The notes under the pieces were generated by a model. It saw only the letters and a program-made list of their open reading frames with translations, searched no databases and had not been told where the DNA came from. From Acholoe squamosa (lineage: Eukaryota; Annelida; Polychaeta; Phyllodocida; Polynoidae): a stretch of DNA of 64,000 nt. The translations under genes were made by a program, and so were the position numbers. This document shows positions 29,701 through 32,378 of this stretch, piece by piece. The stretch is from contig OX439042.1 in assembly GCA_949317995.1 (NCBI GenBank), forward strand, positions 16,595,174 to 16,659,173, written 5' to 3'. Position 1 is the first letter of the stretch. Each line of letters begins with the position of its first letter.

Positions 29701-32378
29701 ACGCCTTAGTTCTATGTACATTCATCAAATACTCCGACATACTCACAGTACCCTGTATTTAACAAAATTATCAAGCAAGCAATTCCCCCTATATCGGGAC
29801 ATTAGCTACATGACACTGACCTTGACGTCTGAGGTGTCGCGCTGACAGTTCTTCCAGGCGGCAGACACAGAGTGGAATGTGCGGTTAGCGTGGTCAAACT
29901 TGCCGCCTTGCAGGTTGAGGAAAAACGAAGTGAACGGCTCCTACAGGATACAAAGATGTACATGTTAATTAGATTTATCCTGTGTGAAATTCAGCTGAGA
30001 TGATTTTGTATCTCAGTTAGGTACTTTGGATTTCTGGAAAGTGAGGCAACTAGATTTGGAATGACATTAATTCAAACTCAGATTACAAATTCAATACTAA
30101 ATACATGAAAACATAATACATACGAGTCTGATGAGCCAGTTGAGTGTGAAGGCTGCAGTGGAGTAGTGAGTGCCGTAGTGGAAAGGCGGGATCTGGTCAT
30201 GTTCCCATTGTTGGTACCGATCCTCAAAGAAGGCTTTCCGTGTCGGGTTCAGCGCACCCACCGGCTACAGGAGAAAATATCCAAGTTAAGTTTATAACAG
30301 TCAGGGCAGATATTGTTTCCTCTTGTTAATAGATGAGTTCATTATCAGAAAGCATTCGGGAATTGGGCGGGTTAAAATTGAAGATACTATCCGTGTATCC
30401 TTTTTTCATTTACGGTAGGCTATATCCTTCATATTTCTTAATTTGGAAAGTAGGGTACCTCATAACTTGCTTAGAGAGGTCATGTAGTTGGAGAGCAGTG
30501 AGAGATTTCTGTAGTTGGAGGGCAGTCAGAGGTCTAATTCTTACCTTAGAGAGGTCCCTGTAGTTGGAGGGCAGTGAGAGGTCTAGTTCTTACCTTAGAG
30601 AGGTCCCTGTAGTTGGAGGGCAGTCAGAGGTCTAATTCTTACCTTAGAGAGGTCCCTGTAGTTGGAGGGCAGTCAGAGGTCTAGTTCTTACCTTGGAGAG
30701 GTCCCTGTAGTTGGAGGGCAGTGAGAGGTCTAGTTCTTACCTTGGAGAGGTCCCTGTAGTTGGAGGGCTGTGAGAGGTCTAGTTCTTACCTTGGAGAGGT
30801 CCCTGTAGTTGGAGGGCAGTGAGAGGTCTAGTTCTTACCTTGGAGAGGTCCCTGTAGTTGGAGGGCTGTGAGAGGTCTAGTTCTTACCTTGGAGAGGTCC
30901 CTGTAGTTGGAGGGCAGTGAGAGGTCTAGTTCTTACCTTGGAGAGGTCCCTGTAGTTGGAGGGCAGTGAGAGGTCTAGTTCTTACCTTGGAGAGGTCCCT
31001 GTAGTTGGAGGGCTGTGAGAGGTCTAGTTCTTACCTTGGAGAGGTCCCTGTAGTTGGAGGGCAGTGAGAGGTCTAGTTCTTACCTTGGAGAGGTCCCTGT
31101 AGTTGGAGGGCAGTGAGAGGTCTAGTTCTTACCTTGGAGAGGTCCCTATAGTCGGAGGGCAGTGAGATGTCCCTGTAGTTGGAGGGCAGTGACGGGTCTA
31201 GTTCTTACCTTGGAGAGGTCCCTGTAGTTGGAGGGTAGTGAGAGGTCTAGTTCCTTAGAGTCATAGTTCACAATGACCCAGGGGTAGACATGGTACTGGT
31301 TGAGGTCGTTGTATGTCCGACCGGCTATCGTGTTCAGGTACATCAGGTAGTCAAAGTTGGAGATCTCCCTCCTCTGCCACTTCTGCATCATTCCTGACAT
31401 CTTAAACAGCTGCTTTGGAGATGCCTGTGACACCCGTCTATGGGGAGAGAAATCAAATTCAGTACTGAAGAGATGATTAAATACCAATGAGGATATTAAT
31501 GTTTAGTATCTCTGACTCTAATATTTTGCAATAGGATCCCCATTTTCTGACAAACTGGTTTCTTCACCCATACACAGCCACATAATATCATGCCCTTGAT
31601 ACCTCAAGCACACACCAGGTGGCGAAGTTGTGCCTTCTCCATCATTAGTAAAGCAATCGCCCTCCAGGTGGTAGCTCTGTTTCATGGCAGCCAACACCCC
31701 AGCTCGCCATGCCTTGGTCTTACTGTATTGATCATTGTGCACAAAGTGATAGGCCTAACAGTTATTTTAAAGTACATTTATTTAGAACCTAAGAAGGTAG
31801 TGCACTGAACTATTTACCTTGTTTGTGGCAGTCCATATTTGACACCGACCCCAACACGGGGTAACGCATTGACGACCTTCTTAGCCGTGGCCTGGTCCGG
31901 GAAGGCAAACATGACAGCCGCTGGAGGAAGGGAATTCATCATCATAATACATGTCTATTAAATCCATATTAACATTGCTATAATCTACTTATACAGTTTT
32001 TCAGTATCTCCAAAAGCTATGAATCTTTATTCAATTATGATCACATTCACCAATTAGCAATAGTTTTGTTATGTAATCTAGAATTACAATTCTATAAAGC
32101 ATTGCTGGAATATATGAAGTCTCCCTCCCCGAAATTGTTTAATGACTAATTTGTATCTAACTGGAATATAGTACATGTACAAACAAGAAGAACATGGAAA
32201 CATTATAAACCACATGTTATCCCAATGTGTACATCAAAACATGATATTATCACATACTTCTTGAGGCCATGAATATCTCTATGGCCGTGTTCTGCAGCAG
32301 GTAGCGCCGGGAGAAGATGGCGCGGATCTCGTTGAAGTGCCATTTGCCGTGTAGGTGGTCCACGTACGCCAGCACCTG
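11620..32378 (-). CDS. Neurobeachin/LRBA-family BEACH-WD40 protein, C-terminal 753 residues (16 exons, 5' end outside window)
   Basis: This is the 3' part of a neurobeachin-type gene. Family members are very large cytoplasmic scaffolds that bind protein kinase A regulatory subunits and act in vesicle and receptor trafficking. Sixteen exons join without a phase conflict and total 2,262 nt, exactly 754 codons with TAG. Fragment residues 1-73 are the end of the PH-like domain, about 90-370 the BEACH domain ([52 protein letters not shown]), and about 390-753 a WD40 region ending [17 protein letters not shown]. Human NBEA, from memory about 2,946 residues, ends in the closely similar FNIDFNRWHYEHQNRY. 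The N-terminal three quarters are not in this window. Invertebrates usually have one gene for the NBEA/LRBA pair, so I do not choose a symbol. Three introns are enlarged by repeats; most others are 170-950 bp. Confidence 0.97.
12029..12054. repeat. ATTG tetranucleotide run
   Basis: Six tandem ATTG units lie just outside the minisatellite. On the minus strand this reads as a CAAT repeat tail following CATAAAGTCC, possibly the end of a short retroposon. Confidence 0.8.
12083..14258 (-). repeat. 86/88-bp minisatellite made of an exon end plus its splice donor (about 18 copies)
   Basis: Blocks 12083-12806 (8 copies) and 13394-14258 (10 copies) repeat a unit that, on the minus strand, reads TACACCTACCCCACATGTGA through the codons for [18 protein letters not shown], then the donor GTAAGT or GTATGT, then about 28 bases of intron start. 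The true exon at 14259-14410 ends with the parental unit, so the array begins at the gene's own splice junction and extends downstream. Units are 86 or 88 bp depending on a two-base difference (ATAGTC versus ACAGAGTC). Several copies carry TGG for CGG and ACA for GCA. Confidence 0.95.
12807..13393 (-). mobile_element. 587-bp insertion in the minisatellite, retroposon-like, 9-bp target duplication
   Basis: The array is interrupted by unrelated sequence flanked by the direct repeat GTCATGTGA (12798-12806 and 13394-13402). Removing the insert restores an array copy. The left edge on the plus strand is TTGGTTTGGTTTGGTTTGG, so on the minus strand the element ends in an AAACC-type simple tail, as in some SINEs and LINEs. 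An open frame of 124 codons on the minus strand matches nothing I know. I see no polymerase III boxes with confidence. Confidence 0.7.
14259..14410 (-). CDS. Neurobeachin exon: penultimate, source of the donor minisatellite
   Basis: This 152-bp exon encodes [40 protein letters not shown] and [10 protein letters not shown] plus two bases of a lysine codon. It matches family LSSDGQNLVTGGDNGVVEVW and YPGCDAGIRAMDLSHDQ. The acceptor is GTTTCAG and the donor is CAGAA/GTAAGT. Its last roughly 58 bases together with the donor are the repeat unit of the array that fills most of the following intron. Confidence 0.97.
14583..14779 (-). CDS. Neurobeachin exon: WD40, [17 protein letters not shown]
   Basis: This 197-bp exon encodes [40 protein letters not shown] and [12 protein letters not shown]. 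It matches family GPCLVHTITGDLLRALEGPEN and FSINGKLLAQMEIND. The acceptor is TTCTGCAG and the donor is GTCCAG/GTAAGG. It ends in phase 0. Confidence 0.97.
15283..15387 (-). CDS. Neurobeachin exon: WD40, [12 protein letters not shown] (GC donor)
   Basis: This 105-bp exon encodes [20 protein letters not shown] then [12 protein letters not shown]. It matches family PRAVLTGHDHEVVCVSVCAELGLVISGAKEG. The frame continues only if the intron starts with GC at 15281-15282: the sequence CAG/GCAAGT is the textbook GC-AG donor. No GT in the right phase is nearby. The acceptor is TTTACAG. Confidence 0.97.
15839..16006 (-). CDS. Neurobeachin exon: WD40, [11 protein letters not shown]
   Basis: This 168-bp exon encodes [39 protein letters not shown] and the end LGDNG. 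It is a classical WD40 repeat with GH and VWHW (W-D like) landmarks, and matches family IVFGHWDVVTCLARSES...DCYIVSGSRDATLLLWYW. The donor is GGAA/GTAAGT and the acceptor is CATCTCAG. Confidence 0.98.
16373..16528 (-). CDS. Neurobeachin exon: WD40, [14 protein letters not shown]
   Basis: This 156-bp exon encodes [20 protein letters not shown] then [20 protein letters not shown] and RVFSTES. It matches family [29 protein letters not shown]. Two bases at the start and one at the end complete split codons with both neighbours. The acceptor is AATTTCAG and the donor is AATCAG/GTATGG. Confidence 0.98.
16529..19370. other. Intron sequence left of the large element
   Basis: This is the downstream part of the 10.1-kb intron. 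It is mostly AT-rich unique sequence with no recognisable exon. It contains one hairpin-family element at 17948-18165. Confidence 0.7.
17948..18165. mobile_element. Hairpin-family MITE copy in a neurobeachin intron
   Basis: The terminal repeats are TTAAACCTTTAAGGAC and GTCCTTAAAAGGTTAA. The interior has GGCGAGTAACTCACAC and GGTGCATCATGGCGAC, shared with other copies. Confidence 0.65.
19371..19717. mobile_element. 347-bp foldback element with perfect 89-bp arms, abutting the 6.3-kb element
   Basis: Positions 19371-19459 and 19629-19717 are perfect inverted copies. The arms contain TTCTGCGAGGCAACACCAGG, clearly related to the terminal repeat of the neighbouring 6.3-kb element. The interior shares GATGACGTCATCGCTTGGCG with the right subterminal region of that element (25947-25970 inverted). 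This is probably a short internally deleted relative that inserted next to, or was used as target by, the larger one. Confidence 0.75.
19716..26019. mobile_element. 6.3-kb gene-free element with perfect 49-bp terminal inverted repeats
   Basis: The sequence starting ATTCTGCTCGGTAACACCAG at 19716-19764 is repeated without mismatch in inverted orientation at 25971-26019. The interior contains no reading frame above about 80 codons and nothing resembling a transposase, integrase or reverse transcriptase. It consists largely of roughly 1.1-kb tandem repeats, with a GC-rich right subterminal region. It makes up most of a 10.1-kb neurobeachin intron. It is most simply a large non-autonomous DNA transposon; I cannot assign the superfamily. 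No convincing target duplication was seen. Confidence 0.75.
21540..25080. repeat. Four tandem copies of a roughly 1.1-kb unit inside the 6.3-kb element
   Basis: The landmark CTGGAAATGTCACTTGGAG recurs at about 21581, 22733, 23817 and 24887, spaced 1.15, 1.08 and 1.07 kb, and the surrounding sequence aligns along the whole unit. The last two copies are the most alike and the first the most diverged. Shorter motifs such as TACAACATAAGCAG recur within and before the units. No coding frame is conserved. Confidence 0.85.
26020..26664. mobile_element. Intron remainder with an element ending ACGCGGGGTTTTACGG
   Basis: From about 26099 to 26330 the sequence has ends resembling CCGCACCCGCATATATGCCG (left) and CATACGCGGGGTTTTACGGT (right), with repeated CCGCACC and GGTGCCTGAAA motifs. 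It is a short repeat that also appears degenerately at 28434-28650 and 61977-62131. The remainder is featureless. Confidence 0.45.
26665..26751 (-). CDS. Neurobeachin exon: proline-rich WD40 loop
   Basis: This 87-bp exon encodes [20 protein letters not shown] then PLSMDQLL. It is less conserved than its neighbours, but it matches the family loop ending PIEMDPLI in position and phase. The donor is CTACTCG/GTAAGT. The acceptor is tandem CAGCAG; use of the upstream AG (exon end 26754) would insert one alanine. The next intron is 10.1 kb because of a large inverted-repeat element. Confidence 0.93.
27114..27294 (-). CDS. Neurobeachin exon: BEACH-WD40 linker and first WD40 strand
   Basis: This 181-bp exon encodes [31 protein letters not shown] and [20 protein letters not shown]. 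It matches family SPLMF...[22 protein letters not shown]...PAVVTVTCSRLFAVNRWHN. It starts in phase 0 and leaves one base. The donor is GCAAAG/GTATGA and the acceptor is TTTTGCAG. Confidence 0.97.
27655..27744 (-). CDS. Neurobeachin exon: end of BEACH domain, FGQTP motif
   Basis: This 90-bp phase 0-0 exon encodes [20 protein letters not shown] then [10 protein letters not shown]. It is family [24 protein letters not shown]. The long open frame through this exon is a different frame; the true one is fixed by homology and by phase 0 at both neighbours. The donor is CACATT/GTAAGT and the acceptor is TTGCAG. Confidence 0.97.
28164..28331 (-). CDS. Neurobeachin exon: BEACH domain [16 protein letters not shown] segment
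   Basis: This 168-bp phase 0-0 exon encodes [35 protein letters not shown] and the end [12 protein letters not shown]. This is the most conserved part of the BEACH domain, nearly identical to human NBEA ([20 protein letters not shown]). The donor AAAGAG/GTCAGA is weaker than the others and the acceptor is CCTCCAG. Confidence 0.98.
28743..28895 (-). CDS. Neurobeachin exon: BEACH domain [10 protein letters not shown] segment
   Basis: This 153-bp phase 0-0 exon encodes [20 protein letters not shown] and ends [10 protein letters not shown]. It matches family ELIPEFYYLPEMFVNSNGYNLG and [17 protein letters not shown]. The donor is AGAATG/GTAAGG and the acceptor is TTTCCAG. Confidence 0.98.
28938..29385. 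repeat. Degenerate roughly 60-bp tandem repeat in a BEACH intron
   Basis: The motif CATACTACTATGCTATTGGC, followed by ATAAATATTGCCATTAGTAT, recurs at about 28945, 29004, 29058, 29110 and 29330. It is interrupted by unrelated sequence around 29130-29290. The array lies in the intron between the [10 protein letters not shown] and EPFTSFF exons and has no coding potential. Confidence 0.75.
29384..29696. mobile_element. Small inverted-repeat element with GGTGTCGG ends
   Basis: The ends are AGGGGTGTCGGAAGC (left) and CCCGACACCCTTC (right, inverted). The 313-bp interior has a run of about 24 T followed by G at the left and a run of 12 G at the right, and no coding frame. It looks like a non-autonomous element of the MITE type. 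Confidence 0.55.
29821..29940 (-). CDS. Neurobeachin exon: BEACH domain [13 protein letters not shown] segment
   Basis: This 120-bp phase 0-0 exon encodes [20 protein letters not shown] and ends [10 protein letters not shown]. It matches family EPFTTFFLN...GKFDHPDRTF...[11 protein letters not shown]. The acceptor is CCTGTAG and the donor is GTCAAG/GTCAGT. Confidence 0.98.
30124..30264 (-). CDS. Neurobeachin exon: BEACH domain PVGALNPTR segment
   Basis: This 141-bp phase 0-0 exon encodes [20 protein letters not shown] and then [20 protein letters not shown]. It continues RDLSK from the previous exon exactly as in the family (RDLSKPIGALNPKR). The YGTHYSTA motif is the core BEACH sequence. The donor is AGACTC/GTATGT and the acceptor is CTGTAG. 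Confidence 0.98.
30475..31208 (-). repeat. 49-bp minisatellite made of a BEACH exon end plus its splice donor (about 16 copies)
   Basis: On the minus strand each 49-bp unit reads CTAGACCTCTCACTGCCCTC, CAACTACAGGGACCTCTCCA, AGGTAAGAA. The first part encodes the exon end [14 protein letters not shown] and the rest is the authentic donor GTAAGAA. The true exon (31209-31437) ends with the parental unit. Copies fill about three quarters of the 944-bp intron. The copies nearest the exon include one truncated unit (31141-31168), and the far end (30475-30552) is degenerate. GGCAGTG/GGCTGTG variants alternate between units. Confidence 0.96.
31209..31437 (-). CDS. Neurobeachin exon: N-terminal part of BEACH domain
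   Basis: This 229-bp exon encodes [20 protein letters not shown], then [20 protein letters not shown] and [20 protein letters not shown], ending [10 protein letters not shown]. These are the signature opening strands and helices of the BEACH fold (family form [31 protein letters not shown]). It ends in phase 0 with donor CCAAG/GTAAGA. Its last 37 bases plus the donor are copied about 16 times into the following intron (30475-31208). Confidence 0.98.
31818..31920 (-). CDS. Neurobeachin exon: PH-BEACH linker
   Basis: This 103-bp exon encodes [16 protein letters not shown] and [14 protein letters not shown]. It corresponds to the family segment MFNFPDQATVKKVV...LPRVGVGTSYGLPQAR that closes the PH-like domain. 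It carries two bases at each end and completes split codons with both neighbours. The donor is ACAAG/GTAAAT and the acceptor is CCTCCAG. The introns on either side are short, 337 and 380 bp. Confidence 0.96.
32258..32375 (-). CDS. Neurobeachin exon: end of PH-like domain, VLAYVD start
   Basis: This 118-bp exon encodes [20 protein letters not shown] followed by [19 protein letters not shown]. It matches the strand-helix end of the neurobeachin PH-like domain, which packs against BEACH. It starts in phase 0 and leaves one base. The donor is AGAA/GTATGT. The acceptor is a tandem CAGCAG, so an alternative start at 32378 would add one glutamine. It is the most upstream exon I can recognise. The preceding exon, which should encode the start of the PH-like domain, was not found in the remaining 31.6 kb. 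Confidence 0.95.

What the first reader, a model, noticed from the sequence alone, without database searches (positions are those of the whole stretch)
30475..31208. A second, independent exon-plus-donor minisatellite in the same gene
The BEACH exon ending [10 protein letters not shown] is followed by about 16 copies of its last 37 bases plus GTAAGAA. The unit (49 bp) is unrelated in sequence to the first array, yet the architecture is the same: the exon's own end is the first unit and the array grows into the intron. Two such events in one gene suggest a recurrent process, perhaps slippage between an exonic and an intronic GAACTAGACC, possibly favoured by keeping functional donors. I know of no standard name for donor-anchored minisatellites.
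Basis: partly seen in the sequence, partly recalled or inferred. Interest (0 to 1): 0.88.

Follow-up and report, generated by a model that had tools for sequence, protein, structure and literature searches.

The report
Exon-end minisatellite in neurobeachin gene
The end of a coding exon, together with its splice signal, has been copied many times into the following intron of a neurobeachin-type gene, an oddity called a "mirage" in lancelets but seen here in what looks like an annelid relative.

Summary
The array is real. On the minus strand, exon 3 of a Nbea/Lrba-type gene (31437-31209, ending [10 protein letters not shown]) is followed by tandem copies of its own last 45 nt plus GTAA (49-bp unit): 12 full copies, a longer hybrid unit at each end, and the exon's own end as first unit. 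A 16-exon model spliced at the first donor encodes 754 aa without a stop and aligns with human neurobeachin across the junction. All 13 downstream AAG|GTAAGA donors pair with U1 as well as the used one, yet each gives a stop 20 codons on, so an intact protein needs the first donor. The 88-bp array (12.1-14.3 kb) has the same design; a decayed 41-bp array abuts the donor of intron 9. The kind is known: 'mirages' in amphioxus, and boundary tandem repeats in human duplicated genes. The window's protein groups with annelids; a deuterostome placement is rejected (AU p=0.0003). Verdict: new member of a known kind, in a host lineage where I found no report. Selection for donors and slippage on an intronic GAACTAGACC are not supported.

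The parts
31209..31437 (-). Exon 3 of the model (BEACH region, ends [10 protein letters not shown]); its last 45 nt (31253-31209) are the exonic part of the first repeat unit
   Evidence: gene model with GT-AG borders; alignment with human NBEA across the junction
31205..31253 (-). First 49-bp unit: 45 exonic nt + GTAA of the used donor (GT at 31208-31207)
   Evidence: 1 of 49 differs from consensus
31129..31204 (-). Proximal 76-bp hybrid unit (49 + 27 bp internal duplication)
30541..31128 (-). 12 regular 49-bp units, each with AAG|GTAAGA
30470..30540 (-). Distal hybrid unit (71 nt to its AAG), followed by CAAGTT instead of a GT donor, then ordinary intron
30124..30264 (-). Exon 4 (PVGALNP...), the 3' splice partner; intron 3 is 944 bp
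14259..14410 (-). Exon 15 (WD40 region, ends LSHDQ + AA of a split K codon); its last 58 nt (14316-14259) begin the 88-bp array
12082..14316 (-). First (86/88-bp) exon-plus-donor array in intron 15: 19 units including the exon's own; four units, the exon's among them, identical over 88 nt; interrupted by a non-repeat insert at about 13390-12807
26948..27113 (-). Third, donor-abutting array: 41 bp x 4 (77% match) starting at base 1 of intron 9; unit holds no recognisable exon sequence
11620..32378 (-). C-terminal 16 exons of the Nbea/Lrba-type gene (PH_BEACH, BEACH, beta-propeller), ending at the stop codon

Best explanation
This is a minisatellite of the 'mirage' kind. [quoted passage not shown] Because the spliceosome keeps using the first donor, which closes the authentic 229-nt exon, every extra copy falls into the intron and is silent. 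Freed from coding constraint, the copies were multiplied and homogenised by ordinary minisatellite turnover (unequal exchange, slippage or gene conversion). Repeats that begin inside an exon can persist only if the first copy carries a working donor that hides the rest; this silent-copy filter, rather than a special mechanism, is enough to explain why exon-overlapping arrays are donor-anchored. Shown: the anatomy, the derivation of the repeats from coding sequence, a conserved intact protein from the first donors, and premature stops from every later unit donor tested. Inferred: use of the first donor in actual mRNA, the order of events and the exchange mechanism.
For: Unit anatomy. First-donor model without stops, contiguous with human NBEA at the exon 3/4 junction. 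In intron 3, 13 of 13 downstream AAG|GTAAGA donors have the same U1 pairing as the used one and each gives a stop 20 codons on; in intron 15, 17 of 17 later unit donors give a stop right after the split codon. In the 88-bp array 14 of the 18 units beyond the exon's carry amino-acid changes, such as R to W or P, A to T and Q to L, while the exon keeps R and A as in 86 and 69 of 98 homologues: the exon is the source, the intron copies are unconstrained. Four 88-nt units including the exon's are identical and the unit order A-A-B recurs 1.8 kb away. Amphioxus precedents reported to splice normally.
Against: No RNA evidence for this gene. Fourteen donors of equal strength make some mis-splicing plausible. 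In human duplicated genes, boundary repeats are often seen both spliced and retained, so such repeats need not be silent. Enrichment at donors is only suggestive: 3 of 15 donors have a local copy, against 0 of 15 acceptors (Fisher p=0.22) and 22 of 880 interior probes with introns 3 and 15 left out (p=0.007), but against all 1094 interior probes (168 positive, 15%) donors are not clearly enriched.
Confidence: 0.82

Rival explanations
1. The array has a splicing function: repeated donors (and the ACTACAG|GG acceptor-like sites 13 nt before them) act as decoys, or give alternative transcripts degraded by nonsense-mediated decay, tuning Nbea output.
For: 13 downstream donors as strong as the used one and 13 ACTACAG|GG sites in intron 3, 12 of them 13 nt before a donor; each of the 13 donors leads to a stop. 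[quoted passage not shown] Human tandem repeats at exon-intron boundaries are reported with alternative transcripts (passages).
Against: Donor columns are not more conserved than chance (p=0.43); the 36 nt from a unit donor to the next unit acceptor is shorter than most animal introns (recalled); amphioxus mirages are reported not to disturb splicing.
Confidence: 0.1
2. Donor sites are mutational hotspots: R-loops or replication stress at the donor actively seed tandem duplications.
For: 3 of 5 intronic arrays (TRF period 15 or more) start within 5 nt of a donor; random placement within their introns gives P=6e-5 (post hoc, array lengths set by hand). No acceptor has a local copy (0 of 15).
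Against: One gene only; the silent-copy filter explains the two exon-overlapping cases; in amphioxus both 5' and 3' boundaries are duplicated; no enrichment against the full set of interior probes.
Confidence: 0.12
3. Assembly artefact: collapsed or falsely expanded repeat.
For: Near-identical 49-bp units are hard to assemble; a published lancelet case (BflGb6 haplotype 1) 'appears to be aberrantly assembled' in the draft genome.
Against: Ordered variants, hybrid units at both ends, a lost last donor and, in the first array, an inserted sequence of about 584 bp. Copy number may still be wrong.
Confidence: 0.05

Closest known systems
Mirages of amphioxus (Adh3, globins BflGb6/BflGb9, troponin C, PGBD5)
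   Same: [quoted passage not shown] PGBD5 has two different ones in one gene (passages seen)
   Different: Host here groups with annelids. Unit numbers here (15 and 19) exceed the 2-7 in the passages seen for BflGb6 and PGBD5; numbers for Adh3 and troponin C were not seen. Both exon-spanning arrays here are at donors; lancelets show both boundaries.
Variable internal tandem repeats at exon-intron boundaries in human segmental duplications (PMC2812944)
   Same: Minisatellite expansion at an exon-intron boundary that can end up as intron (passages seen)
   Different: There, novel introns form from exonic repeats and often have transcripts that retain the repeat; here an existing conserved splice junction is kept and the intron lengthens.
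Human 6-16 (IFI6/G1P3) minisatellite
   Same: [quoted passage not shown] reference only)
   Different: There, by the title, several donors serve the transcript; here each downstream unit donor gives a premature stop. Unit details not read.
Intron gain by tandem duplication of AG/GT proto-splice sites (Rogers model)
   Same: Tandem duplication across a splice site creates intronic sequence with usable signals (discussed in PMC3087553)
   Different: Here an existing intron grows; no new intron is shown.

Membership tests
Mirage (boundary-spanning minisatellite) | Tandem repeat whose unit spans an exon-intron boundary | tested here: met
   45 exonic nt + GTAA per 49-bp unit; 58 exonic nt + 28-30 intronic nt per 86/88-bp unit. 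The 41-bp array of intron 9 abuts the donor and does not meet this.
Mirage (boundary-spanning minisatellite) | Copies retain splice signals (many, not all, in lancelets) | tested here: met
   13 downstream AAG|GTAAGA in intron 3, the distal hybrid having lost its GT; GT kept in 18 of 19 units of array 1, the exception being cut by the insert
Mirage (boundary-spanning minisatellite) | Normal mRNA unaffected | tested here: inconclusive
   First-donor model is intact and conserved; no transcript data
Mirage (boundary-spanning minisatellite) | Length instability, somatic polymorphism | not testable with these tools
   one haplotype only
Mirage (boundary-spanning minisatellite) | Cephalochordate host (the hosts of the cases given that name in the passages seen; not part of the definition) | tested here: not met
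   window with annelids 100/99; deuterostome placement AU p=0.0003; no cephalochordate sequence was in the tree
Multiple-donor minisatellite (human 6-16) | Transcripts made from several unit donors | not tested
   no RNA data; the 13 alternatives in intron 3 would truncate the protein

The most novel reading that the evidence does not exclude
Donor-anchored minisatellites are not a lancelet peculiarity but a recurrent product of animal gene evolution. In this annelid-like genome one gene carries three of different age, showing birth, turnover and decay of new intron sequence, in two cases made out of coding sequence. The exon end itself takes part in the array's turnover (in array 1 it is identical to three intronic copies), so intronic copies could feed variants back into the coding exon.
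Probability: 0.45. Interest if true: 0.62.

Novelty: new member of a known kind. Interest (0 to 1): 0.45.

Why it matters
It puts mirage-type repeats in a lophotrochozoan, beside lancelets and human duplicated genes, so the process may be general and can be scanned for in any well-assembled animal genome. It offers a natural test of how the spliceosome picks one of 14 equally strong donors, and a visible route by which introns lengthen, or new introns could arise, from tandem duplications at splice sites.

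Tried and rejected
Rejected: amphioxus as source. It was my first guess from the mirage literature; the gene tree says otherwise. Limits: no cephalochordate sequence was in the tree (none appeared among the 120 hits listed by each), and nemerteans, brachiopods and phoronids were not knowingly sampled, so 'annelid' means the annelid side of Lophotrochozoa. The split between the window and Ridgeia/Helobdella has only 81/80 support. The AU tests were run after the tree had been seen.

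Rejected: slippage on an intronic GAACTAGACC (circular), and selection for donors. Not found: an Rfam family at gathering score or a tRNA in the window; further Nbea exons upstream of 32.4 kb (11 homologues as queries at E 0.01, which cover at most some 540 residues before that exon); relatives of the two exon-spanning units (E up to 1) or of the insert (E up to 0.001) elsewhere in the window.

Papers. Passages seen: PMC3087553, PMC3902484, PMC12783039, PMC2206037, PMC2812944, PMC4039745, PMC2632668; reference-list passages only: PMC2572611, PMC4526556. The other papers listed were seen as listings only. The earthworm metallothionein paper reports minisatellites in a first intron and fourth-exon duplications absent from the transcript; none of the passages shown puts a repeat across a splice site. 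The C. elegans paper concerns intronic minisatellites near alternative exons. The amphioxus VCBP paper mentions complete or partial exons, some with canonical splice sites, in introns. The 2002 Adh paper that is cited for the mirage of that locus and the 1995 6-16 paper are not held and were not read. 'I found no report in annelids' rests on ten searches of an open-licence library, whose listings were mostly not opened.

Rows left out of counts: the figure 22 of 880 leaves out introns 3 and 15 (all: 168 of 1094), 12 of 110 homologues with a gap were dropped at the WD40 segment, out of 120 listed (the last ten were not used); the placement test leaves out TRF rows of period under 15 and those inside the insert of array 1, and was designed after the arrays had been seen.

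Full report
Observation. The minus strand of the window carries the 3' part of a Nbea/Lrba-type gene. Homologue-guided annotation gave 16 exons with GT-AG borders (one GC-AG, intron 13) between 32378 and 11620, encoding 754 aa and ending at a stop codon; Pfam finds BEACH (E=1.3e-120), PH_BEACH and the neurobeachin beta-propeller. Exon 3 (31437-31209) ends [10 protein letters not shown] and is spliced to exon 4 (PVGALNP...). The joined protein aligns without a break to human neurobeachin at exactly this junction, so the donor used ancestrally, and presumably now, is the first one.

Anatomy of the array. The unit is 49 bp: 45 nt of exon 3 (GAACTAGACC...CCAAG) plus GTAA. From the exon outward there is the exon's own unit (1 difference), a 76-bp hybrid, 12 regular units with 5 distinct sequences and a mean pairwise difference of 1.3 of 49, and a distal hybrid of 71 nt up to its AAG, followed by CAAGTT instead of a GT donor. 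The proximal hybrid holds an extra 27 bp, which is the distance between the two GACCTCTC copies inside each regular unit; the distal one is built alike. The intron after the last unit (CAAGTTATGAGG...) suggests that the ancestral donor was of the GTAAGTT type and that the A at +6 in the units is the duplication junction; this is inference.

Relation to the first array. Exon 15 ends ...[18 protein letters not shown](K); its last 58 nt plus 28-30 intron nt make an 86/88-bp unit present 19 times including the exon's own; one unit is cut by the insert and the last runs out into ordinary intron. Four units including the exon's are identical over all 88 nt, and the unit order A-A-B recurs 1.8 kb away. 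An insert of about 584 bp, with TCACATGAC on both sides, interrupts the array. Of the 18 units beyond the exon's, 14 carry amino-acid changes (the cut unit included), such as R to W or P, A to T and Q to L. The exon keeps R and A, as do 86 and 69 of 98 homologues (110 examined, 12 dropped for gaps). The exon is therefore the source, and the intron copies are free of coding constraint. The two arrays share no sequence at BLAST sensitivity.

A third case. Intron 9 begins with a 41-bp, four-copy array (77% match) whose first unit starts at the first intron base. Its unit has no recognisable exon sequence, so it is donor-abutting rather than donor-spanning. In a scan of all 15 introns' boundaries with 24-nt probes, 3 of 15 donors (introns 3, 9, 15) and 0 of 15 acceptors have a nearby copy of at least 19 of 24. 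Interior probes give 22 of 880 without introns 3 and 15, but 168 of 1094 with them. The contrast with acceptors is not significant (p=0.22), that with the reduced interior set is (p=0.007), and with the full interior set there is no clear enrichment. A placement test gives P=6e-5 for 3 of 5 arrays starting within 5 nt of a donor, but it is post hoc. Enrichment at donors is thus suggestive and no more.

Splicing. Duplex energies with the U1 5' end are -9.5 kcal/mol for the used donor of intron 3 and for the 13 downstream AAG|GTAAGA donors; one of the gene's other 14 donors is stronger (intron 14, -11.5). Use of any of the 13 would add 76-664 nt and bring a stop 20 codons after the exon. In intron 15 the exon's donor is weaker (-5.6), and the 17 later GT unit donors (six GTAAGT, eleven GTATGT) each give a stop right after the split codon. 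The other introns hold 12 donor-like sites of 7 or more of 9 consensus bases in 14,875 bp. So the cell has to choose the first of 14 equal donors, presumably by exon definition and 5'-proximal preference (established knowledge, not tested here). A test for donor conservation is negative: the 4 variable columns of the 49-bp unit miss the donor with chance probability 0.43, and in the 88-bp unit the donor's fourth base is variable (7 A, 11 T of 18 complete units).

What is known. [quoted passage not shown] a model of intron gain was built on them (passages of PMC3087553 and PMC3902484). PGBD5 has two different ones in one gene. In human segmental duplications, variable tandem repeats at exon-intron boundaries are reported to give novel introns, often with transcripts that keep the repeat (passages of PMC2812944). 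A human minisatellite 'provides multiple splice donor sites' (title only).

What is new. The window is not from a lancelet by the evidence at hand. Its 754-aa protein is 83% identical to an unnamed sequence (P0122) and 82% to the annelid Ridgeia, 73% to the leech Helobdella, 72-74% to five molluscs over most of its length (81% to a 301-aa Magallana protein), 67-70% to five arthropods, 62-63% to two echinoderms and 62-64% to vertebrates. In the tree it joins Ridgeia, Helobdella and two unnamed sequences with 100/99 support; placing it with deuterostomes is rejected (AU p=0.0003), as is placing it with molluscs (p=9e-6). No lancelet sequence was in the tree; but a lancelet closer to an annelid than molluscs are would be extraordinary. 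I found no report of such arrays in annelids or other lophotrochozoans in ten searches of an open-licence library.

Verdict. The array is real, silent by the indications available, and of a known kind; what is new is the host lineage, the high copy numbers and three arrays of different age in one gene. The genome-wide test that would decide between a donor hotspot and a simple silent-copy filter could not be run.

Noticed in passing
window 12807-13390 (-): Insert of about 584 bp inside the 88-bp array, with TCACATGAC on both sides (target-site-duplication-like); no second copy in the window.
   Followed up: partly
window 26948-27113 (-): Decayed 41-bp x 4 array that starts at the first base of intron 9; units 2 and 4 carry donor-like GTAAGC and GTGAGT.
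   Followed up: yes
window 15282 (-): Intron 13 has a GC donor (CAG|GCAAGT).
   Followed up: no
window 38157-38704: 34-bp x 16 array (91% match) upstream of the first recognised exon; its relation to any exon is unknown.
   Followed up: no
window 28951-29126: 53-bp x 3.3 array inside intron 5, about 55 bp from the acceptor, not spanning it.
   Followed up: no
window 1-2450 (+): Strongly C-rich, repetitive stretch (GC skew -0.69 in the first 2 kb) with several long open frames, up to 305 codons stop to stop; probably not coding.
   Followed up: no
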